A stretch of 64,000 nucleotides of DNA from Hysterium pulicare CBS 123377 (lineage: Eukaryota > Ascomycota > Dothideomycetes > Hysteriales > Hysteriaceae): contig AJFK01000108.1 in the NCBI GenBank assembly GCA_000467715.1, positions 1 to 64,000 on the forward strand. Direction: 5' to 3'. The first letter of the stretch is position 1. Each line of letters starts with the position of its first letter. A program made the position numbers and the translations under genes. Under the pieces are notes generated by a model that was not told the DNA's origin, did no database searches, and saw nothing but the letters and a program-made list of their open reading frames with translations. Shown here piece after piece: positions 1,609 to 56,186 of this stretch.

Positions 1609-2799
1609 TCATCCTGAACTCGCCTTCAACGCTTTTAGAGAAGCCCATGCTTGCACGACCGAAGCAACAGTTGATACAATTGTGAGTAATAATATGAGTA
1701 ATGCGATCCAGAATGTATACCACTGTGCAGGATTTCGACGGTCTGCCCAAAGTTGATTCCAACTGACTGGCGGGGACTGGAAGACCTCTTCATAGACCTC
1801 AAGCAAACGGTCTCTCCAATGATCAAACTCTCGAATGTTCAGACTACGTGGCGCATCGAAAGGCGCAACACAATGGAAATCCTGGCCATGCTTTCGGAGA
1901 AGATTCTGAGTTCGTGGGTCCCAATGTGGAAAGAGGAGGTTGAGAGACGATATGGTCTCCGACAATACACTCCTAGGTATGACATGTTTAGGCGCATTCC
2001 TACTGATAATCATCAATGGATGGTCACAACGTTGCCCAATATCAACTTACCTCGTACGACTCTGGCTGTCAGAATTGCCCTTTTCAGAGCTCTCCTTTTC
2101 AGAATTCTCCTGTTTAGAGTTCAACTGGCTCAGACGGGCGGCTAGACAACTTTTATATGGGTAAATCCATAAGGTTTTCGTTCTTCGGTCTAGCCTCAAA
2201 TGGTCTTCAAGGCTGTCGGTCCAGTCAAGCTTCAAGTCGCAAATGCGAACCATATTGGTTGCAGTAAAAAATGGATCCAAGCGGCTGTTTTTTGCATCTG
2301 GAGACCACGTAGAAAGAGGAAACTGTGAGGCAACTAACCGCTCTAGCGACACATCAAGTCCCCAACAAATACGGCGCTTGCGCATATCCTGGACTGGCAG
2401 CTTCTCGTCTTTCACGTTCATCATCAGCCAGAGACGCATTGCCAGGTCGATTGAACGGTCGATCGACAGGTCGGCCGCATTTTGAAAATAAGACTGGAGC
2501 TGTTTTCTGAGATCTATCTTGGAGATCTGGCTTTGTGCAGATGCTGTTCGCACGATATGTAGTACATCTTCATGTGTTCTCGCGGCCAGGTCGAAGGCGA
2601 CCCAACACTCAGGTATTCCGATGCTTAGTTTTTTCAACTCCCGTTCGTAGTACTCGAAATAACTATCGTACGCACTTATAGGTAGAACATCTCGGACTTC
2701 GCCAAAGAACGTTGAGAGGATGGCAATTTTCGTTTCTCGGCTTGGAGCTCGAAGCAAGCTATTCGGCATATTCTGAAACCCGGAGGGATTTAGAGTCAT
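1609..2799 (-). CDS. Fungal orphan-family protein with one C-terminal membrane span
   Basis: Two exons (2799-2051 and 1999-1609) join across a 51-base GTAAGT..TAG intron (2000-2050), giving about 379 residues. The intron length is a multiple of three and holds the only in-frame stop. The start is the first ATG in frame; the codon two before it is GTG. The body is hydrophilic, and the end carries the motif WADRRNPAQWYTFW followed by a Leu/Ile/Val-rich span of about 23 residues and a short tail. I know this ending from many uncharacterised leotiomycete and sordariomycete proteins, so the family is real but its function is unknown. A C-terminal anchor with a large N-terminal domain, probably cytosolic, is inferred. 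It lies 355 bases from, and divergent to, the protease-transporter fusion gene, so the two may share a promoter. An upstream first exon cannot be ruled out. Confidence 0.7.
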
Positions 2800-3154
2800 A
2801 AACACAAAATAGTGTGATCGAGCAACAACGGCAGGATCAAAGTTTCATGATATCAAAACTGCGGTTCCGCGTGCGTGGAAAAAGTTGGCAAGAACGTTGG
2901 CAAGAAAGCTGGATGGTGGCTGCAAGGCTGAAACAAGCTGCGCCCAATTTGACCGGTCAACAACGCCACCACTAGCAGTTCTACACAGCCCCTTCAACAA
3001 CGATCGCGCTTCCTAAAGTCAACCATATGGCCTCCCGACACAATCAAAAGCGACCCCAACCACAGAGCTACTCTCACTGTAGCGCACTATTGGTTGCGAA
3101 TCCTATTTGAGGGCGGGAGTAGCAGATCTGATGCTGCTGTAACCCTCACACCCA
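2800..3154. promoter_or_regulatory. Divergent promoter between orphan membrane protein and protease-MFS gene
   Basis: This 355-base spacer separates two start codons that point away from each other, so it must hold both 5' regions unless undetected upstream exons exist. I saw no clear TATA box or named operator in it. Confidence 0.45.
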
Positions 3155-6100
3155 ATGGAGATCCTCCGGCCTGAAAGCTCGCGTTATACTTTAGAGCCAC
3201 CAGACTTTACACCAAGGGTACAAACAGGAAGGGATATTTCTAACGTTCTCCGGGATTTGAAGGGGTTGTTTAGCATCAAGACTCCGTCTCATGATCCGAG
3301 TTCCTACGGACAAAATATTACCACTAGAAAGACCACTGCTGCATCACCAGGAGATTTGGCCAGCAGCTCCGCGGACCTTCCAAGGATTGAGGAAGCATCG
3401 TTCAGCACTAAAACCGGCCGACCTCAAAGCCTCGCTCCAAGCTCATCCGACGGCTCATCGACACGAACTCGTACGGTAGCTCATTCACTTCGTTCTCGGG
3501 ATACAGTTACGTTGAAATCTATTTACGAAATTCAGAAGGGCGCATGGGCAGCACCTCGACATAAAATGGACCAAGTTCACCTTGATGCATGGTTTCAGAT
3601 CAAGCTCCGTCTCGAAGACACACTTCGACATACATTTCGTCCGAAAAGAGGCCTCGACCCATCTATTGCGCTCGAATTCATGGGCAGGTCCATCGGAGAC
3701 TAATCTCAAGCCCACTATTGTCGTTGTCTGCTGCAATGAATCAAATCGCAAGCAGTTAAAGAAGATCTTCAAGCAACAGAAATGGATCGTTGATCACAAG
3801 TACCATTGTATGATCGTTGTCGATTCTATACAGAAACTTGCGAAAGGAGGTGCTTCAACAAACAACGACCGGGTTATTCGAGCGATGCTTCCTGAAGGAT
3901 ATCAGACCTTATGCGGAGTTCTCGCTGAAGTGTCTCCCTCCACTATGTTACAACCACCTCTCGCCTTCACAATTGGAGGGATGATTTTAGTGGACGACCA
4001 GCCATATGGGTTAACGGCTGGCCACATATTGGATCTTCCCTTGCATCATGACTTTCTGGACTCTGAAGAATTGGAGCACTCCGTGTCTGACGATGAATCA
4101 GTGGATCCAGAAGAAAGCTCGTCAGATTCGCCATTTGTGTACGTTGACGAAAGTGATTATGCCACAATATCCAATGAGGACTTCGCTGGTGATGAAACCT
4201 GGAATGAAAAGCAAAATCTTCTCTCATATGACGAAGATCCAGAGGCCTTCGAAGACCCGAGTATTTCGATTGAGGTCTCGCCATCTTGGACATTCATCGG
4301 CTCCATTTATCAGAATGGACAAGATATGTCACCCATCACTCAAAGAAGCGTAGACTGGGCGCTTATCAGAATACCAAATACCGAGTTTTGGCGCACAAAC
4401 CGCATATCAATACCAGCTACACAAACCAGTTTCGAAGTACGCTCCGTTGCTCCGGAGAATCAAACAACCCACGGCCAAGTCTGGGTCCATGCTGGTATTA
4501 GTGGCCTGACCCGAGGTCATTTGAGTGAGTCCCCCGTCTACCTACAGCTGGAGGATGTAACGCTTGATGCTCGACAAATTATAATGGACCGAGGTCTTGG
4601 TATGTCCCACTCTTGCATTGAACATCTCTCTGGCCAATGTGTTAACAAGTTAAGCAGTTCCTGGCGATTCCGGAGCCTGGGTTATCCGAGACGGCAAGGT
4701 ATGTGGCCATATTATTGCCGGCCGTGGATCCGTACCTTGGGCTTATATGATCCCAATGACTCAAATATTGGAAGATATCAAGACAAAAATGAATGCAAAG
4801 CATGTGAAAATACTTGAAGCGGAGGATTTGAATCGACTGAAAACGGTTCCCCACGAAATGGCACCTACACCACGATATGGAACTCAAGCTCCGACTGCTC
4901 CTGTTGCCGAGGCCAGAATAGGATGGCAGTCAAACAGTGCACCCGAAGCGACCTTCATTAGCAGTGATAATGCAACGCGAAGTACGCCTCAAGGCTCATC
5001 TGCGAGCGTTTCCATGCCTGTTCAAACAAACCAGCCTGATGGTTCGATACTTCTCTCTAATATTCACCATCTACCAGAAATATCTCTAAGAAAAGAAAAG
5101 TCCAGACCAGGATGGATTTCCAACCTGATGACGCATTTTTCGAGACCTTACCGAAAATCATCATCAAGTTCTGAGAAAGATGACGACAAATTTAGACTAC
5201 GAGAACCGAAGACTGATGACAGTAATTGGTTTTTTGGGCTTTTGCTCGAATGCTACGTAAATTTTTTGGTGAGTCTAATTCTCACACGAAGATGATGTAT
5301 TTCTAACTGTCACGTTCGTTGAAAGATCGGAGTTGATCAAACGAGTTTTGGTAAGTACGATACTGAGAAGACCACAAACACCCCTCATGTTCAATACTAA
5401 TTAGAAACCAGCCTCCGGGATCCCAGCTGTTCTAAACCATCTCAACTCCTCCGTTGATCTTGATATCTGTGGTTCTGCTAGTTTGCTATTTATTGCAACT
5501 ACATACTTGCTTATCTCATCCAGTAAAAAGAGGAACTGGTTTTCCCTCCCTAGTATGTTGATACTTTTTGGTAAGTCACAGATAGTTTCGTAAATACCAT
5601 GAGTAGTGACAAAATCCCATCTGCTTCCTCTGTCTTAGATGAACATCCGAAAAATGTACGGTCAGATCAGCCATTTCACTGGAGGTTTCAAGCAATGTTC
5701 CCCACCGAGAGTCACTCACATATTTCCAAGGGGGTCCATGCATAGGGTTAAAACAGTTATGCGTTGGAGCAGACACGGTCTCCATCTGCATGATCTTACA
5801 CTAACTTCAGTACAGCCGGAAATATCTTATGTATGCTAAGTCAGTCCTCTACTGAGATTTTGGCTGGGAGGGCGGTAGTTGGTATTGCCTCCGCCATTTT
5901 GCTCCACAAAAAATCTCGATTTCATGTTTCTCGACTCGGTCATGCGTCACGGATCCTCTCGTTTTTGCAAGGAGCTGGTGTTGGAGCTGCGTTCGGTGGC
6001 CTTCATGTGGGTTCTACCGTAATCTTCCATTGATCTTTTTGTAGACGTCTGACGTTCTTACTCAAGGCTCGACCTACCGGGTTATTTATATCGCTCATTA

Positions 6101-7832
6101 TAATCGGGATTATTGTTTCCCTCTCTGAGCTCGCACTACTCCGATTTCGAAAGAAAGACCCAAAGAACCACGAGAGGCGTAGATCCTCCTCAAGCTCCTT
6201 TCGATCCTTTCGAACATTTTATTACCAGTCGACTTGGGGTGTATTTTGGAGAACAGTAATTTTCAGGATGTCACGAAATATCTATGTCAAAAACATTGGT
6301 CTCAGTATGCTACTTTTCGGCGGATTGACATATATCATAGCATCTATTAGTCTGGGAAAAGACGTACGTGGTTTGGAAAGGCTGAGAGTAGTCGCTCTCA
6401 TTTTGGGAATCTTGCTACTTACAAGCTTTGTTCTCCTATTTGCGCTTGGCCGATCAGCCATAATGGCGTCGATGTTTCGGCCAAGAGTATACCTCAAGCG
6501 CAGGCAAATTTTCTTTGCCTCTCTTTACACCGTTGGTCTTGGAAGTGCTTTTTTCATGTAAGTGTCTGGCCGAAATCGTAATTCGATGCACGGCTGACCA
6601 CTTAGTCACATTTACCATCTACCAATCTACTTAAAGGTAAGCAGACTATTTTATTACTAGAACGAAGCTAACATTTACTATCTTAGGATGTGAAAGGCCT
6701 CCCTTTTGGTTTGGTAGGTGTGAATATGCTCGCATATACTCTCACTTTATCAATATCAGCGATCGCATCCTGGTTGTCATTGGTCTATCTTCTTAGAAGG
6801 TATTATGGCCTTCTTCTACGCGCCTCTGCCGCCTTATTTCTCTTAGGATCATGCCTTCTCATGACTTTAGGCCCTTCCAGTACCCGGGCACATTTTATAG
6901 GCTACCAAGTCTTGACCGGAGGTGGTGCTGGTATCGGTCTCCCAGCGTTGGCTCTTTTTCTTTCCAATGTGGAATCTCCATTAGACACGGTTTCAGCCTG
7001 TAAGTGCCTTTTCACAATTCCATAGTGACTTTATCTAACCCTTCGCAGATGTTGCACCACTGCTGTTCTTTACCATCAGCGGAGCCCTTTCGATTTCTGT
7101 GTCTCAAAACATATTTGTGCGATCTTTGCAGGGTGCAATTCAGCCTGCCGTAAGCAACAATTCGTCCACCCTTGACATATCACTCGCAAGGTTCATCACT
7201 CATGCCAATTTCACGAATTTGAGGAATGTAACCGCACCACTATCACCAGAAGAAGAGCTACAATTTCAGTCAACCTTTAGCGAAGCCATTCAAGGAGCTT
7301 TTGTATTGGCAATAATTGCCGCCGGAATCGTTCTACTGGCAACAATGATTGTGGGTATCCCCATACCCCTGCTATAAAAGGAGCAATACTCTTTTCATCG
7401 TTTAGAAACACTAACAACGAGAAGGGAGATTGGGACAGCTTTCTCTTTCATGAAAAATTCAATATTCACAAACGTCACCAAGATTACTCCACTCAATCTC
7501 TGCACGAGAAATTCGAACCATGTCTTAGAAGTACCGGTCATCTCATGTACAATGATCACACACTCAGAAAGGTCTTGCAAGAAGCCGAAGAAGACCTTGG
7601 CATGTTGATATCCAATAACCTACCTCTGGATACTGTGGAGCGTTACATGCATGCATCGGTAGAGATGCGGCTCGCAGCATACGATTACGAATTGCGACGT
7701 AGCGTGCCAAGTCACGCATATAGAAAATGTATGGATATAGACATCGAACGCGGTCTAGGCCTAGATCATCTCCCCTACGATACGCAACATCTGACGCCTA
7801 CCGAACGAGATCATCGAGTATATCATCAATGA
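3155..7832 (+). CDS. Trypsin-like serine protease domain fused to an MFS transporter
   Basis: I read ten exons: 3155-4599, 4658-5268, 5326-5350, 5412-5570, 5816-6018, 6067-6557, 6606-6636, 6687-6999, 7049-7350 and 7422-7832, about 1,330 residues. After a disordered N-terminus comes a chymotrypsin-fold pattern: His in LTAGH (codon 4023), Asp in SVDWALIRI (codon 4353) and Ser in VPGDSGAW (codon 4669), with a very acidic insert between His and Asp. A Ser-rich linker follows. Then come MFS motifs in DHA2/TRI12-like order: GVDQTSFASGIP in span 1, ILAGRAVVGIASA in span 4, HIYHLPIYLKDVKG, GYQVLTGGGAGIG, SVSQNIFV, and a final span near 7320. A hydrophilic tail of about 135 residues ends it. The fusion is supported because span 1 crosses two introns that begin inside the protease-linker exon. 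One oddity is that the frame shifts by one base near 3690-3705. The weakest joins are at 6019 and 7351. Confidence 0.72.
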
Positions 7833-35599: not shown

Positions 35600-38500
35600 C
35601 TATTCCAAAGCTTGTACACTATACGACTCAGCCGTAAACATCATACGACCATTCCTCCTCAAACCCTCAGGATCTACATAGATTCTAACGTTCATATCAT
35701 CCCTCCCAAGATTGAAAACTCGGAAGATGATGTAAACTTCATCATTTCGCCTTTCATCGTTAAAGGCCATTCGTTGCATCTACGATCCCATAAAATTAGC
35801 GCCGAACAGGTTTTGGAAGATTGTCTAGTAGTTCCTGAATGTGTTTTGGAGAATTAGGGGGAGTGAGACTTACCCTACTGTATTGAGATTTACTCATGAA
35901 GAACTTGGTATTGCATTCCTTCGTCGTAGTCTTAACTTCGACGTAATACTTCGTGCGGGCATCTTGCCGTATCTCAGGGACTGGGTATCCGCGAAGGGAC
36001 AGCATCGCGGCGAAGTCTCCACCATTATCTTCGTATACGATGTCTGCCGTCTCAGAACCTTGCCAGGGCTCTAGGTTTCTGTATTGTTGATGGGCTCGGA
36101 CATGCTTTCGAATGGTACTTTGCCAACTATCAGTGTTGAAGCCTGGAAGACCCAACTTGAGAAGCAACTCGAAGACCTAAGTGAGGGTCAGCAGGGCTTA
36201 GGTACTTTTTGACACAGTCTACTTTGCTTACAAAGAGCTCCCCTGCCGCGCCAATGAGTATATCATGCTTTAGCTGATCTTGAGATCGAACTCCAAGTGC
36301 GGAACTAAGATCAACTGCGGGAAGGTTACCGGAGTTTGAATCCAAAGCGCCTCGCAATCCGGAGACGTTGAAAGGCTCATCTGTTGGGAAGTCAATGGTG
36401 CGTGCTTTCTCCAAAACACGATCCAAGAGAGATGCATAAGCTGTGTTGTCCTGGAACCGGTCGGCCTGTTCTGGCAGAGCACGACCGGCAGCCGGTGGAA
36501 GATACTGAGGAATTGGAAGAGGAGTATTCGAAGGAGTCCTTCGCGTTGTGGGGCTAGGAAGAGATTGATGCAACCTTCCGGAACTATCTGCAGATAGCCT
36601 AGGCACCGCCGCAAGCGGTTCTTCGCCAACATCACTGGATACACCGACGAGAGTCTCCGCATCATCTTCATCATCATCCTCCTCCATCGGCTCCCTACTT
36701 TCCCTACGTGCGAAGTGAGAGGTGACTGAAATTGACTCCAAGGTATTATCCAGTGGTGGTTCAATCCCAGGAACTTGAATTATACCTTCTTCTTTCAGAA
36801 TCTCGTCAACCGCGTACAGGGACCGTGCTTGAAGTATAGGGTTTACTGTAGCGCGCGCAGAGTCTGCTACAACCTTGAAAAGAGCAAGCAGGCCTCGAGG
36901 CAATTGTTGGAGGCAAGAGACCTCCTTCTCCTTTGGGTCTTTGGGAACATATAGGCGTATGGGATTGCTCGCGCTGTCCAGATGAAATCTACCCCTGCTG
37001 CTGCGCACCGTGATCGTTGCATCCCCTACAGTCAGGCAGGTCGATTTCGAGAATTCATCGGTCTCATAAACTTCGATTTCTGACAGGCGTTCGAATAGCT
37101 GCCGAGGGCTATCCCCGGCGATGACGCCACCATAATGAAATGCGCATCTGATGATAGAATAAGCGGGCGCAAGTATAAAGGCATTGTATCAACTCACCGG
37201 ACCAGTGCATAAGCCTTGTTTCTCAGCTCCCCCTGAAGAGCGCGTTCCAATGAACCGCCTCGCACAGAGGTTGTTTCTTTGACTAGTGCCGATGCGTATC
37301 GGTGGTCCACTCCGAGAGCAGTGAGAAATGGCGCGAGCTCCCGAATTTCTTCCAAGCTATAATCGAGAGTTGCGACCTGATCTCTAAACATCTGGCGGAA
37401 CTCTAGACGATCCAATATGGCAAAGTTATAGTCCACACTCTCGAGTATAACCTGACTATTAGTGAGTCTAATTGGTAGCACCCGTAGACTTCGTAACTGT
37501 TCCAGATTTATCTTGCGTGGTTCAAGCGCATTGATGTCTGATATTAGAGTTCTTACTAATTGAATTTCGGGGTTCCCATCGAGAATTTGGATGAGTCCTT
37601 GGACATGCATGTTAATATTCGGTTCTTCGACCCCAAGATCCGATTTGAAAAAGTGCTCTAGGTCGGGGTAGATGCCGCTAATTGCATATTTTCCGGGAAT
37701 CCTGATCATCTCTGTCCACAGACAAGCGGAAGGAGGGCACCATATTCCAAGAGCTGGAATAAAGATATGGTTACCCCTTTCAAATGCGGACTTGACGTTA
37801 GCTTTATCTGATTCGGTTGTGGCCTTTTGCGAAATGAAACGATAACTCTCAACAATGGACCCTGCGTCTAGATCTTCACGACCTTCTTGTAGTTCGAGGA
37901 TGGCCTCTCTCCAGGATATGTTGCGAATTCCTAGGCGGCTGCGAAATAATTGCTCAAGACCGTTGTAGTTATCTATATTCGCCAAAATAGTGTACCTCGG
38001 AGGGGACGAGAAGAATGTCGGGCCTTTCCAGAAACAGTCGCTAGGTGTGACCCAGCGCGGATTGTTGAACTCATTCGCTGACAAGTAAACGAGCGCATGT
38101 GTGTTGAAGATCTCCCTATCTTTCGTAAGTAAAACTCGAAACAACGAAGGACATTGACCAACCGTGTGCGTTCTCTATCGCCTTGCGTGCAATGATTTTG
38201 GATCTCTACATATAGAGCAAACAACTTTCGAATGGCTTCAGAATCCCGGAGCGGGCTCTCCGAATATCTTTCCTTCGTGTATCGCAAAACCATCAAAAGG
38301 AAGTTCAAATTCAATTCATGGCTAACGCCGAAACGCTCTAAGAAATGCCAGTCATAGACGGTAGAGGCAGTTTCGGTGTTAGTAGTGGGTAGTCGTAAGA
38401 AAGGAAATCCGTCATAACCTCCCACCCTTTGAAAACAGCCTAGAAGCTGAGGCGTCGGTATGTATGTGTCCTTGAGAGTATATTCGCTATTTTCGCAGGG

Positions 38501-40876
38501 CACGTAAACACATGATAATGCAGCGACAATCTCTGGCTGCATTTGTGGCTGATAAAGAAGCCAGTGCGCCTTTAGTACTCCAAGCAGTTTATCTTTACGT
38601 CGTTCAGTGATAAACTTAAACTCTGCGGATAGTTGTCTCGAGTCAGATAAGTCGACCAACTGTGGGTGGCGCTGTATGCCCACACAACTCTCGATCCACG
38701 ATAGCCAAGACCGTCCGTTGTGGATAATATCTGTCGGGAAGGCCTCCATATATTTAGTATGCAGAAAATGAACAGCAACTCCAGCGGCTGTCGGAAGATC
38801 TGCTTTAAACAAATCATGCGCCTCGTATTCCGCCTGCGACTCGAGATACAGTGTTTCCTTAGAGAAAAGAGTTCGGCTCACCCACTTCACCTCCTGGTCT
38901 AATACTGAGACACAGCCGTCCAGCCGTTGCGTGTTGGATGCTCGATGCCAGAACAAGTACCGAAGATGCGAAATCGAGTTCTCTAAGGTGCAGGGTCTCC
39001 TGCCGAACCTGTAGTATTCCAGAATCGAATCAATGACGGTCCTGGGAACGCACTTCTTGACGCCAAAGTGCCCCAAAAGCCGCCGGCGAGATACATTTTG
39101 GACTGCATTGTTGTGCACTATTGAGAATCCTATGTCGATTGGGACCAGAACACCATCACTTTCGGGGAAAAAGCAAACATGTCGGCCAGTAATCCATTGG
39201 CCTGTTTGTAGTGGAATGAGTTGCAGGCTCTTGATCTGCAGCTGTTGTTCCTCCCGCGCATGGTCCCAAGGTAACATTAGCATTTTCGCCGCCCTTGTGT
39301 GCCAGCTGTCAGTGCTAGTGTTACTCTTCATTCTTGATGAGCGCCTTTCGAGATCTGCCTTTACGCGAGGGATGATGGCCTGAAAACCCAAAGACCTAAC
39401 CCCCAGAGTCCTCAGAGCATTCTTGTTTTGGTACTTGTCTGAGAGGTAGATCTCGTCTTCCAGGTCCTCGAAAAGCGGTTCTCCGACCTCGTCACGAGAT
39501 ACTTCAGGCAACAAACATAATTGACGAGGGAGTTTGAAAGACTTTTCACTCCTTGTCCTAAGAATCGGTGTCTCAGCCAGTTGAGTTATGATCAGCCTTT
39601 TCAGTTCGGCCCAAAAAGGATCGGACACAGAGTCGCCAGGTAAGTATTCGAGCCATCGATACTGTAACTGCGGATGTCGGCAAAATTCAGCAATTGCATC
39701 TCGGAATACCATAGAGATCTCCTTTCGAATTGCAATGTTCCAAGGAGTATGGTAAATGTCTTCACGACTCGCTTGGGTAATGAAATCGGATTGAATCAAG
39801 AACTATGTCAATATTCAGTCATGTGCTACCGGCAATCATGGGAAAACCCTACTCTGAATCCAGCGTCACGCAATGGAAGGAATGCATATATTTGTTGCTG
39901 CCGTATGACTGGCTTTTGCTCTAGATCAACCGGAAATGCCAGTACAATATCGGCTTTATTTATATTCGGTCGACTTTCATGCCTCGGGAGATTCCTCGCA
40001 ATAGTTTTAGTAACAAGATAGGTATATATATCTTCGGTGGCTGGAGAATCCCCGGACCTAGAGCTCTTGGTAATTTTCGCTATGTTGCTATATGTGTCGT
40101 ACACATATCGATAAGTTGTGGTTATAGTAGGAACTGAGGGTGGACGGATGATTATTGTGATGTGCCGAAGTTTCCTCAGAAAAAGGAGTAACGCATCCGG
40201 AACTGCCATGATCTCGGATTCTATGTCATCGAAATTCACGCTATCTTTGATCGTGAGTGAAATCCGAGTTCGAATGTCACTAGGTATATCGCAGTGGTCC
40301 TCGTTGATGGGAGTTACCATTCCCAACCCATCGCCGTCGTTTTCGTGGATGAAACAGAAGGAGAACGGACCAGACTGTATATGAACTTTGGAAGCGACTC
40401 TGAAGACTGATTTGAAGCCGATACCTTTTTCGCCAATGAACCCTTGTACAACCGTCTTTGTGCTATCTCCAGTGCTGCAGATCGCCTTGACGTTTGGTAC
40501 CGTGAAGCCATCCTCATTCGAATCGATATGAATGTAGCGTTCTGAAACGTCAAATCGAACATACGGTTGACGGCCTTGCGCCGTCGCTCGTAGATATGTG
40601 TTATCTTCCGCGTTTTGTATTAATTCGTACAGGAAATGTGTATCTTTGGAGTAGAGATTTGTTGCAAGTCTAATTTCTGTTAGCAGACATGTACTGATCT
40701 CAAGGTCTAAGGCGGCCTTGCGTTTTCGTGGCAGAGCCCAGCTTCCGTCTTACACTATCTAGAGCTTCTAGCACTTCCGGAGGGGTATTCGCACGAGCTG
40801 CGGGTGTTATCCCGCCATTTTCGATACGAATCTTATCAATGATACGTCTGGCCTCTGCCCTTGACAGTTCGTCCAT
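35600..40876 (-). CDS. NO VEIN-like protein: GHKL ATPase plus C-terminal DUF3883
   Basis: Seven exons (40876-40722, 40669-39853, 39802-38163, 38115-37198, 37147-36232, 36176-35874, 35779-35600) give about 1,642 residues, and the total length keeps frame throughout. The N-terminus has the HSP90-type ATP fold: N box ELIQNAEDN at about residues 65-75, G1 as NEDGF and G2 as GEKGIGFKS at about 130. A long central region follows the sacsin/NOV pattern, including GFRFLIQSDF rebuilt across intron 2. An acidic linker at about 1350 precedes DUF3883 (AAGELFVFELLL, then YYVEVKTTTKE, then YIIFRVFNLG), a PD-(D/E)XK-like fold. Plant NOV affects vein patterning; fungal copies are unstudied. Intron 1 is GC..AG, intron 2 begins GTAGGG, and intron 3 begins GTTGGT and is the least certain. 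Confidence 0.82.
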
Positions 40877-51371: not shown

Positions 51372-52687
51372 CTAGTCTTCATGGACTATTTCCGTAGTCA
51401 TGTCAATGACTTGGGGAAAAAGCACTTCCAGCTCCTCGTCCGGATCTGGCTTTCCCTTCGAATCCGACTCGTCGCTCTCGTCTCCATGCTCCTTCTTCTC
51501 CCCTCCCTTCTTCTTCTCCCCTTCGTTCTTCTTCTCTCCTCCCTTCTCTCCATCCTCCTTCTCAACCCCTTTCTCCTCCCCTTCCTTCTTCCCATCTTTC
51601 TCCTCCCCCCCAACAATCTTCTCCTCAACAACATCTTCAACAACATCCTGAACAACTACCTTCTCCCCCTTCGCTCTTTTCGAAACCTCTTTCTTGTCTC
51701 CATCCCCCTTCTTCTCTCCATCACCCTTCTTCTCTCCATCACCCTTCTTCTCCCCATCCCCCTTCTTCTTCCCATCCTTCTCCTTCTCCTTCTCCTTCTT
51801 TCCCTCCTCCTTCCCCTTCTCAAAAGTCTTCTCAAGAACATCACCCGGAATAACCCACCCCTTGTTTTCCTTGTCATCGTTCAAACCTCCCCCCAATCCA
51901 TCCACCCCCTCCACAAACCCCACAACGGCCACAACCTCCCTCTTCGAAACCCCTCCCTTCACCATCCGCTTCACATCCCGCAACTCGTACGGCGCATCGG
52001 CTGGCGCAATGAAGCAGCATCCAGCCGTGGTGACCAGCCCCTGGTCCATGGCCGCATAGTAATCTTTCGGCTTCATGTGCGCCCAGGCGTCGAAGGCGCA
52101 CGGGTGCGGGTGCTCGAAGCAATCTTCGGCGTAGTGGCCGCCGCGGGCGATGGGGCGGACGTGGAGGGCGCCTGTGTCGGGTGCGGTGACTGGATGGGGT
52201 TAGTGGGTTGATCTTGGGAGGGGTGGGCTGGTTGAAGTGGAGGGGGTAGGAAGAAGGGAGGAAGGAAGAAGGGAGGAAGGGAGAGAGAGGAAGTCTGTGG
52301 AAAGAGGCTTTGAGAGCTTTTACGCAAGGGGCTTGGGGGCTTTGGGGGATGGGTGGACAGGCGGGACTTGTGCTAGCACCTGTAGGATAGATGGGGGTAT
52401 AGGAGGGAGAAGTAAGGAAAGTTTAAAAGATTTGAGGCCAGTTAATATATGGAGATGAAAGGAGAAAGGAAAGAGTAGCTTTGCAGTAAAAGGCTTTGCA
52501 CATTGCTGCTCAACGCCCTCGTAGGCTTTGAACTCATGGTGAAGACGCAAGACTTGTGCCAGACAGAGAGAGGAAGAAATAGATGGACAGGCTTACTGCT
52601 TTCAGGTTGGGGGACAAGAGCAACAGGGGCAGCGAGCGCAACTTGGGCTGCGGCGGCGGCTGCGAGGAGAGCACTTGGGAAAATCAT
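51372..52687 (-). CDS. Predicted secreted protein with Lys/Glu/Gly-Asp repeat tail
   Basis: Exon 1 (52687-52597) codes a signal peptide, MIFPSALLAAAAAAQVALA, followed by APVALVPQP. Exon 2 starts at 52552 after a 44-base intron and codes ILRLHHEFKAYEGVEQQ. A last exon beginning near 52191 codes a Cys-containing domain (GGHYAEDCFEHPHPC, TTAGCCFIAPADAPYELRDV) and then an extremely charged tail with repeated KKGDGE units and an acidic end. The joins between about 52520 and 52191 are unresolved and may include another exon. I do not recognise the family. A secreted, highly charged protein could bind surfaces, metals or nucleic acid, but that is speculation. The tail is encoded by the 18-base repeat at 51700-51771. 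Confidence 0.55.
51700..51771. repeat. Tandem repeat, four 18-base units in coding sequence
   Basis: The units start at 51700, 51718, 51736 and 51754, each CCATC[C/A]CCCTTCTTC with a variable end. On the minus strand they code KKGDGE-like hexapeptides. Near-identity suggests recent slippage and possible length variation between strains. Confidence 0.75.
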
Positions 52688-54457: not shown

Positions 54458-56186
54458 CTACTCAACAACCTCAACCCCCCTTGCACTGCTCTTCGGGCCC
54501 TGCTCCAGGGAAACCTCCTTATGAATCACATTATTCGGCGAAACATTCAAGTCAGTCTCACGATGACCATCAAGGACCTTGCGATTGTAGACGTTTGCGT
54601 AAACAGGGAAGACCCAAGCAAGGACGTAAAAAGCCGTTGGGATGGCCATTGCGGTATGGAAGTTGCCGGTATGTGTCGCGATTGCGCCGGTCATGGGTGG
54701 AATTGCAGCTCCACCGGAGATGGCAGCGACGAGCATACTGCCGCCAATTTTGGTGTGGCGACCGAGGCCGCGCAGGGCGAGGGTGAAGATTGTTGCGAAG
54801 CATGCCTAATGGATATATGATTAGTATGCTTGGGAAGAGATCCAGCATGTAGATTGGGAGCTGCGCTTACACTTTCGAAACAGAGTACTAATATTAACAA
54901 AGTCACACTTGTGTGTCCACGCGTCAAGGTGGCAGAGAGACCGAATACGAAGCAAAGGCCGAGGTAGACTGCCATAATGTAGCGGGGTTTAAATGTTCTT
55001 ATGGTCATGAGATAGGCAGCGAGAAAACGGTTGAAGGCGTAAAGACCTTGACCAACTGCTAAAAGATCGGCTACGGAGTTTGTCAGCATTACCGTTGAGA
55101 TATAATCTAGGGATTGTGGTGGCCCTTACAAGAGAACGACTTGCTATACCCAACCTCCTCGCAGAAATTCACGAAGTAATTCGCGACAGCGACTTGGGCG
55201 CCGACATAGCAGAACTGACTCCAGACCCCAAGGAACAGGTTATACTGCTTGCGGAATGGCCCAACATCTTGTCCCGCGATATCTTCTTCTTGAAGGTTCA
55301 TGTCTGCATCCGTGACTTCAGGCATAGGTGCGAGGTAGAAAAGGATGATAAGGAGAGCAACAAAGCAGGCGACACCAAGATAGACCCATTGAACGTTCTT
55401 CAATCCCTGCTTGTCATTGACAGTCTTTGCGAAGAACACGCGGGAAGCCAGGAGGGGTGCGACGAAAGATCCGACACCTTGAATCCCTTGAGCAAGATTG
55501 AGTCGAATCTCAGAGTAACGCGGTGGTCCACAAATGGCCAGGAAATTATCAGCGCCTGTCTCAAGTGTGGATAGACCAGCTCCGACCACGAACATGCTAC
55601 CGCAAAATCCGCCGAAGGACTCCTTGACTCCGCTTGGCCAGAACAGGAGACAGCCAACCGTCAGCACGGCCAGACCTGTAGATTGTCAGCATCCCTTTCT
55701 TCACGAATACAACAATCTTTCATGTTGTTGCTGTTGCCCTACTCTACTTGTTAAGGCAGGGATTGGCCGAAGGGTTACCCGGTGTTGGATTTACCCGCCA
55801 ATAGCATCCTCTGAGAAAGTAGACGAAGACTTGGGTACATACCAGTCATAAATGTGACTCTAAAACCATACCGTCGAAGAATCCAACCAGAAATCGTCAA
55901 GGGACAAAGGAAGTAGGCCCCAAAATAGGCAGCAGAGAGGCCAGATGCTTCACTCGCAGAGATGTGTAGCGTCGACTGGAAATGGGAGTTCAATACATCG
56001 AGGAGACCGTAAGCAAATCCCCAAAGAAAGAAGAGGATGGTAACTTCAGTATGGTAAGCAATAGTTCTCATTTAGTCTGAGAAGAGACATACCAAGGCCG
56101 CATGGAATGAGGGATTGTTTAAGCGTAAGACCTGCACCCTCTGTGATGGCTTTGTCGTCGACGACAATTTTGCGCCTGTAACCCAT
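54458..56186 (-). CDS. FHS-family MFS permease (fucose permease-like)
   Basis: Five exons (56186-56093, 56043-55843, 55675-55130, 55070-54871, 54805-54458) give 462 residues and twelve expected spans. Features of the fucose:H+ symporter family are FFLWGFAYGLLDVLNSHFQ in span 1, SGLSAAYFGAYFLCPL in span 2, the GLSTLETGADNFLA stretch in span 4, LNLAQGIQGVGSFVAP in span 5, and GGAAIPPMTGAIA late in the protein. It should import a hexose or deoxyhexose with a proton at the plasma membrane; the sugar is not shown. Intron 2 is unusually long here (167 bases). It opens the putative cluster at the right end of the window. Confidence 0.88.

What the first reader, a model, noticed from the sequence alone, without database searches (positions are those of the whole stretch)
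3155..7832. In-frame fusion of a trypsin-like protease domain to a whole MFS transporter
The sequence shows a full His/Asp/Ser triad in trypsin order (TAGH, DWAL, GDSGAW) upstream of a complete set of DHA2-like MFS motifs. The join is not two adjacent genes: MFS span 1 starts in the same exon as the protease linker and continues through a 25-base exon, with phases matching at each junction. I know of no described protease-MFS fusion. Possible roles are a transporter gated by proteolysis, a membrane-tethered sensor protease, or a defence receptor built on a transporter body.
Basis: partly seen in the sequence, partly recalled or inferred. Interest (0 to 1): 0.88.

Follow-up and report, generated by a model that had tools for sequence, protein, structure and literature searches.

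The report
Protease fused to a transporter-like membrane protein
One fungal gene appears to encode a trypsin-type protein-cutting domain joined to a 14-pass transporter-like membrane body, an architecture that suggests a membrane sensor whose signal is a cut, although no transcript or second species has confirmed it.

Summary
From about 3702 to 7832 (+) one reading frame can be followed through nine plausible introns. It joins a His/Asp/Ser triad domain (TAGH, DWAL, GDSGAW) to a 14-span MFS body with its N-terminus inside. The exon carrying the catalytic Ser runs 450 stop-free bases into MFS span 1 (0 of 3000 shuffles do).

Three parts of the claim are weaker. No library HMM finds a trypsin domain. 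MFS_1 scores 33.3 bits, just under its cut-off of 33.4, and the motif A loop is gone. The first 546 bases are in another frame, and the change near 3690-3710 is unexplained.

The protease most resembles the fungal signalling proteases Ssy5 and SltB in layout: the intron beside the Ser lies in the same codon, four before it, as the sltB intron (PMC4557415), and the His-Asp spacing of 110 equals one published SltB assignment. Yeast pairs Ssy5 with Ssy1, a receptor evolved from transporters. I therefore read this gene as a probable single-chain receptor-protease. The function is inferred, no fungal relatives could be searched, and transcript proof is missing.

The parts
3155..3700 (+). N-terminal segment, 182 codons from ATG 3155 to the stop at 3701-3703, S/T-rich and without hydrophobic spans; in a different frame from the rest and not safely connected to it
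   Evidence: (max hydropathy -0.01)
3702..4599 (+). Exon 2 (from where the main frame is clear): protease domain with catalytic His and Asp
   Evidence: open in 0 of 1000 shuffles (3702-4598)
4023..4025 (+). Putative catalytic His (LTAGH)
4029..4277 (+). 83-residue acidic insert between the His and Asp motifs (14 D, 14 E, 1 K, 0 R)
4353..4355 (+). Putative catalytic Asp (VDWALI)
4600..4657 (+). Intron 58 bases, phase 1, splitting the codon four before the catalytic Ser
4658..5268 (+). Exon 3: GDSGAW and the end of the protease domain, linker, and the first 15 residues of MFS span 1, in one open frame
4669..4671 (+). Putative catalytic Ser (PGDSGAW)
4792..5223 (+). Linker, 144 residues, rich in S, T and P
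5326..5350 (+). Exon 4, 25 bases: middle of span 1 (IGVDQTSF)
5412..5570 (+). Exon 5: end of span 1, spans 2-3, loop without motif A
5571..5815 (+). Intron 245 bases, much longer than the eight others (48-71)
5816..6006 (+). Exon 6: spans 3-5
6067..6557 (+). Exon 7: spans 6-9
   Evidence: open in 0 of 3000 shuffles (6067-6555)
6606..6636 (+). Exon 8, 31 bases
6687..6999 (+). Exon 9: spans 10-12
7049..7350 (+). Exon 10: spans 13-14 and the 66-residue outward loop (unspliced, the frame stops at 7375-7377)
7422..7832 (+). Exon 11: cytosolic tail of 136 residues, no known family
   Evidence: 7422-7829 open in 2 of 3000 shuffles; intron 7351-7421 is the weakest of the nine (12.2 bits); no Pfam match

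Best explanation
One gene encodes a membrane protein with a cytosolic, N-terminal trypsin-fold serine endoprotease that resembles the Ssy5/SltB signalling proteases, a flexible linker, a 14-span DHA2-like MFS body that has diverged from true transporters, and a cytosolic tail. It most likely works as a single-chain receptor-protease: the MFS body senses a small molecule or ion, its change of shape (or a modification of the N-terminal part) releases or activates the tethered protease, and the protease cuts a cytosolic target, most plausibly a latent transcription factor, as Ssy5 cuts Stp1. Shown here: order of the parts, an open frame from 3702 to 7832 under the splicing model, predicted topology, triad motifs. 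Inferred: catalytic activity, sensing, ligand, substrate.
For: Triad motifs in order with trypsin-like spacing and a block-profile score reached by 12 of 20,000 shuffles. Open Ser-to-span-1 exon, 0 of 3000 shuffles, with no splice donor of 5 or more after 4699. MFS_1 E 3.4e-8, 14 spans, 55 K+R on one side against 11 on the other, so protease and tail are predicted cytosolic. Motif A loop missing, as expected if transport was given up. Intron four codons before the Ser as in sltB, His-Asp 110 as in the H939-D1049 assignment. Ssy5 works beside a receptor evolved from transporters (PMC12958826 abstract and passages).
Against: No trypsin or S64 match in Pfam at E up to 10, none in NCBIfam or PDB; HMMER with fetched trypsins does not separate the query from shuffles. 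AlphaFold of the His/Asp exon alone is uninformative (pLDDT 34). Frame change near 3690-3710. The region next to span 1 (5131-5268) does not score as coding. [quoted passage not shown] No homologue, transcript or substrate is known.
Confidence: 0.45

Rival explanations
1. A real fusion, but the MFS body still transports and the protease domain regulates it or its turnover (a protease-controlled transporter, or a protease merely anchored to a membrane).
For: The span-1 D-T-P pattern, span-4 Arg and the glycine-rich span 5 are kept in the alignment with EmrB.
Against: Motif A is missing and MFS_1 scores 33.3 bits against 187.5 for EmrB.
Confidence: 0.2
2. Two adjacent genes, a cytosolic protease and an MFS gene starting near ATG 5128, read together only because the exon happens to be open.
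For: In-frame ATGs exist in exon 3, the last at 5128; 5131-5268 does not score as coding in the model frame; MFS genes of this type are commonly free-standing (recalled).
Against: The Ser exon has no in-frame stop before span 1 (0 of 3000 shuffles of 4819-5268 open), and the linker 4819-5130 scores best in the model frame among six (0.046). No splice donor of 5 or more that could divert the protease end lies after 4699.
Confidence: 0.2
3. A decaying or disabled copy: the change of frame near 3690-3710 stops translation after 182 codons, and the rest is not made as one protein.
For: Among the candidates enumerated no acceptable intron explains the frame change: best 8.5 bits against 12.2-18.3.
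Against: From 3702 to 7832 no exon of the model holds a stop before the last codon. Frame-0 ATGs at 3585 and 3810 could start translation downstream, and an assembly error is possible.
Confidence: 0.15

Closest known systems
SltB of Aspergillus nidulans (pseudo-kinase plus S64-like protease; PMC4557415, section 3.4 read and passages of other sections)
   Same: His/Asp/Ser order; intron in the codon four before the Ser (with splicing type A); His-Asp 110 for H939-D1049; domain missed by standard prediction; SltB is confined to Pezizomycotina
   Different: No kinase-like region found here; MFS body instead; other published assignments (H925, D1037, D1046) give other spacings; no sequence of SltB was compared
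SPS sensor of Saccharomyces cerevisiae: Ssy1 (receptor evolved from transporters), Ptr3, Ssy5 (chymotrypsin-like protease); PMC12958826, abstract and passages
   Same: A transporter-type membrane body working with a cytosolic trypsin-fold protease; Ssy5 has a long, largely disordered N-terminal prodomain
   Different: Three separate proteins there; Ssy1 is an amino-acid-permease relative, not an MFS protein (recalled); triad spacing 80 and 95 against 110 and 86; no Pfam S64 match here
DHA2-family MFS transporters (E. coli EmrB as yardstick)
   Same: 14 spans, span-1 D-T-P pattern, span-4 Arg, glycine-rich span 5, long outward loop between spans 13 and 14
   Different: Motif A loop absent; blastp with EmrB only E 0.09; no NCBIfam match while EmrB matches TIGR00711; fused protease and tail
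S1 trypsins and HtrA/Trypsin_2 proteases
   Same: Three active-site blocks in order
   Different: No significant HMM match; 83-residue acidic insert between His and Asp

Membership tests
Peptidase_S64 (Ssy5), PF08192 | Match to the Pfam S64 profile | tested here: not met
   Not listed at E up to 1 or 10; HMMER's filters drop most weak matches. A search of one bacterial genome and the controls with PF08192 rang nowhere and says nothing
Peptidase_S64 (Ssy5), PF08192 | His/Asp/Ser triad of the chymotrypsin type | tested here: met
   Motifs and order only; activity not tested
SltB | N-terminal pseudo-kinase region | tested here: not met
   No Pfam family in 3143-3703 or the whole model at E up to 1
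SltB | Intron next to the catalytic Ser codon | tested here: met
   Codon four before the Ser, phase 1 here; SltB donor 3413-4 gives codon 1138, phase 1 if these are the GT, phase 2 if they flank the junction
MFS (Pfam MFS_1) | Profile match | tested here: inconclusive
   E 3.4e-8 but 33.3 bits against the cut-off 33.4; whole model 30.9 bits
DHA2 transporters | 14 spans, N-terminus inside | tested here: met
   Hydropathy and charge count with a cut-off I chose (1.1)
DHA2 transporters | Motif A between spans 2 and 3 | tested here: not met
   Loop reads SSSKKRNW; motif recalled
DHA2 transporters | NCBIfam efflux_EmrB (TIGR00711) | tested here: not met
   No NCBIfam family at E up to 10; EmrB control 729.5 bits
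Trypsin S1 / Trypsin_2 | Pfam profile match | tested here: not met
SPS-type sensor | Ligand binding triggers protease release and processing of a latent transcription factor | not testable with these tools
   Needs an experiment; claimed only as 'works like'

The most novel reading that the evidence does not exclude
A one-polypeptide nutrient, ion or chemical receptor in a filamentous ascomycete: an MFS body that has stopped transporting and instead switches on a covalently attached Ssy5/SltB-type cytosolic protease that releases a transcription factor.
Probability: 0.3. Interest if true: 0.85.

Novelty: new variant of a known kind. Interest (0 to 1): 0.6.

Why it matters
Pezizomycotina have the signalling protease SltB, but the SltB study reports that its searches found no identifiable homologues of the other two SPS elements or of Stp1 (PMC4557415, passage). 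A gene that physically joins such a protease to a transporter body would offer a candidate receptor for this class of protease, make 'a transporter-like receptor controls a protease' testable in one molecule, and point to a protease domain that profile libraries miss.

Tried and rejected
Own genome: none held. Relatives of the protease exon in genome contigs (11 pattern matches, 0 relatives) and viral contigs (5, 0), of MFS exon 6067-6555 in viral contigs (40, 0): nothing. I had no fungal collection, so this says little about fungi. PDB by sequence: 0 for the MFS part at E up to 1 and 0 for the protease part at E up to 10. Paralogue inside the window: tblastn found only self matches and chance hits (E 1.8 or more). 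Rfam at gathering scores: 0 in the window.

Trypsin profiles: a first profile of 18 poorly extracted sequences gave the query 0.5 bits, below several shuffles. A second attempt used 16 S1 sequences (17 of 21 ids gave a domain) and 4 HtrA sequences (5 of 56 ids): HMMER gave -0.6 and 1.5 bits, with shuffles above it in both cases; hhalign gave probabilities of 3.1 and 0.9 percent, above the best of 40 shuffles each (1.7 and 0.4) but far from significant. Block profile: with an 18-column Ser block the best placement missed GDSG and 10 of 3000 shuffles reached the score. I then cut that block to 10 columns, because the query has one residue fewer after the Ser, and 12 of 20,000 reached it. That choice was made after seeing the first result. 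The 61 training rows (of 72 loci, L082-L153) include at least one wrongly cut His block, seen.

Codon score trained on 14 window ORFs: weak; it favours the model frame for exon 2, the linker and the tail, not for 5131-5268 nor for MFS exons 6, 7 and 9, whose hydrophobic composition differs from the training set (exon 5 was scored in a wrong frame and is not used). AlphaFold of 3702-4598 alone: pLDDT 34, so no fold search was made. Rejected for the first junction: 49- and 79-base introns (donors GTCCGA, GTCTCG); a 235-base intron 3476-3710 (5.9 bits, branch motif at 7) remains possible but weak.

Papers: seven searches looked for a protease-MFS fusion (they returned 0, 0, 5, 3, 14, 1 and 82 papers, of which 0, 0, 5, 3, 10, 1 and 12 were listed). 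I saw listings only; no listed title or abstract start names one. The other three searches were on gasdermin/NLR and on Ssy5.
Full report
The finding concerns 3155-7832 on the + strand of a 64 kb window. Gene content (ZGRF1-like_N, Sin1 CRIM, PRCC, DUF6601 and others) and the short introns fit a filamentous fungus; the taxon is inferred and Leotiomycetes was not tested. No whole genome is held and I had no collection of fungal genomes, so the work rests on the sequence itself, profile libraries, bacterial yardsticks and papers.

Gene structure. From 3702 the model is E2 3702-4599, E3 4658-5268, E4 5326-5350, E5 5412-5570, E6 5816-6006, E7 6067-6557, E8 6606-6636, E9 6687-6999, E10 7049-7350 and E11 7422-7832. 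Each of the nine introns carries a branch-site motif, and their summed donor and acceptor scores run from 12.2 to 18.3 bits. The scoring matrix was made from the same nine introns, and where acceptors competed I took the one that keeps the frame, so this is a yardstick and not a proof. Shuffled sequence is never or rarely open over the four stretches tested: 0 of 1000 (3702-4598), 0 of 3000 (4819-5268), 0 of 3000 (6067-6555), 2 of 3000 (7422-7829). The first segment, 3155-3700, is open in another frame. Introns that would connect it were enumerated (42-260 bases, GT or GC donors); the best scored 8.5 bits and had no branch motif in range. The cause may be a sequencing error, a disabling change, a poor intron, or a start at the frame-0 ATG 3585. 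It does not touch the protease-MFS join.

The join. After GDSGAW the frame stays open through the end of the protease domain, a 144-residue linker (21 S, 10 T, 13 P) and the first 15 residues of span 1. In 4660-5268 the only donor scoring 5 or more is at 4699 (AAG|GTATGT, 8.6), inside the GKVCG strand. The linker 4819-5130 scores best in the model frame among six, but 5131-5268 does not. An independent MFS start at ATG 5128 cannot be excluded.

Protease domain. Pfam and NCBIfam show no protease family and PDB sequence search no chain (the one weak Pfam line, tRNA_anti_2 at E 0.19, is taken as chance). Profiles of fetched S1 and HtrA proteases do not separate the query from its shuffles by HMMER; hhalign ranks it above 40 shuffles each, but at probabilities of 3.1 and 0.9 percent. 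A three-block test does better: the best collinear triple falls on LTAGH, VDWALI and PGDSGAW with 25.7 bits, reached by 12 of 20,000 shuffles; of 60 natural ORF pieces of the window the top one is this locus without its Ser exon (16.4) and the best other 13.8. The Ser block was shortened after a first run in which 10 of 3000 shuffles reached the score and the Ser was misplaced. Motif order, spacing and GDSGAW make a trypsin-type fold likely, but it is not proven.

Kinship. In the SltB paper (PMC4557415; section 3.4 read in full; passages), domain prediction in the C-terminal part was at first unsuccessful; similarity to S64 came from MEROPS at E 0.09 and identity with Ssy5 was 25 percent over 68 residues. 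[quoted passage not shown] The single sltB intron has its preferred donor at nt 3413-4 (an alternative at 3417-8 exists), and the proposed Ser is 1142. If 3413-4 is the GT, the intron splits codon 1138 in phase 1, four codons before the Ser; if the numbers flank the junction, it is the same codon in phase 2. Here the intron splits codon 300 (counted from 3702) in phase 1, four codons before Ser 304. About 708 base positions were available between the His and 40 residues past the Ser, so a chance match is unlikely; but this is one published gene, seen as numbers and not as sequence, and the paper's acceptor differs by one base between text and legend. His-Asp is 110 here; in SltB it is 110 (H939-D1049) or 124 (H925-D1049), and less with D1037 or D1046, which the authors also consider because D1049 is poorly conserved. 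Asp-Ser is 86 against 93. Ssy5 has H465, D545 and S640 (PMC12958826, passage), that is 80 and 95.

MFS body. MFS_1 gives E 3.4e-8 at 33.3 bits for the MFS part (cut-off 33.4) and 30.9 bits for the whole model; EmrB gives 187.5. Fourteen spans pass the hydropathy cut-off of 1.1 that I chose; the weakest has 1.23, and one stretch of the protease-plus-linker part reaches 1.14 and would also just pass. Loops on the N-terminal side hold 55 K+R in 276 residues and the others 11 in 145 (sums). The protease and tail are therefore predicted cytosolic, and the 66-residue loop between spans 13 and 14 faces out, with four N-glycosylation-type sequons by reading. The alignment with EmrB is collinear but weak (blastp E 0.09). 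The motif A loop is replaced by SSSKKRNW.

Mechanism. [quoted passage not shown] The present gene joins comparable parts in one chain. I favour a receptor-protease (0.45), with a fusion that still transports (0.2), two genes (0.2) and a disabled copy (0.15) as rivals. No step of function has been shown.

Literature. Seven of the ten paper searches looked for a protease-MFS fusion; no listed title or abstract start names one. Only listings were seen, in an open-licence library, so absence from print is not shown.

Noticed in passing
4699 (+): A donor-like site (AAG|GTATGT, 8.6 bits) lies inside the conserved strand after the catalytic Ser; use of it would remove the end of the protease. The sltB intron also has alternative donors.
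   Followed up: partly
5571-5815 (+): One intron of 245 bases among eight of 48-71; it might hold an insertion.
   Followed up: no
2047-2844 (-): 265-residue open frame upstream on the other strand, no Pfam match.
   Followed up: no
36130-40749 (-): Several long frames in a row; the first, 39826-40749, matches the sacsin domain (E 6.9e-10), the next ones have no convincing match. Possibly one large sacsin-like gene.
   Followed up: partly
51372-52199 (-): Open frame with a long K/E/G low-complexity stretch containing repeats of KKGDGE.
   Followed up: no
55107-55685 (-): Part of another MFS gene in the same window, MFS_1 33.6 bits over 192 residues.
   Followed up: no
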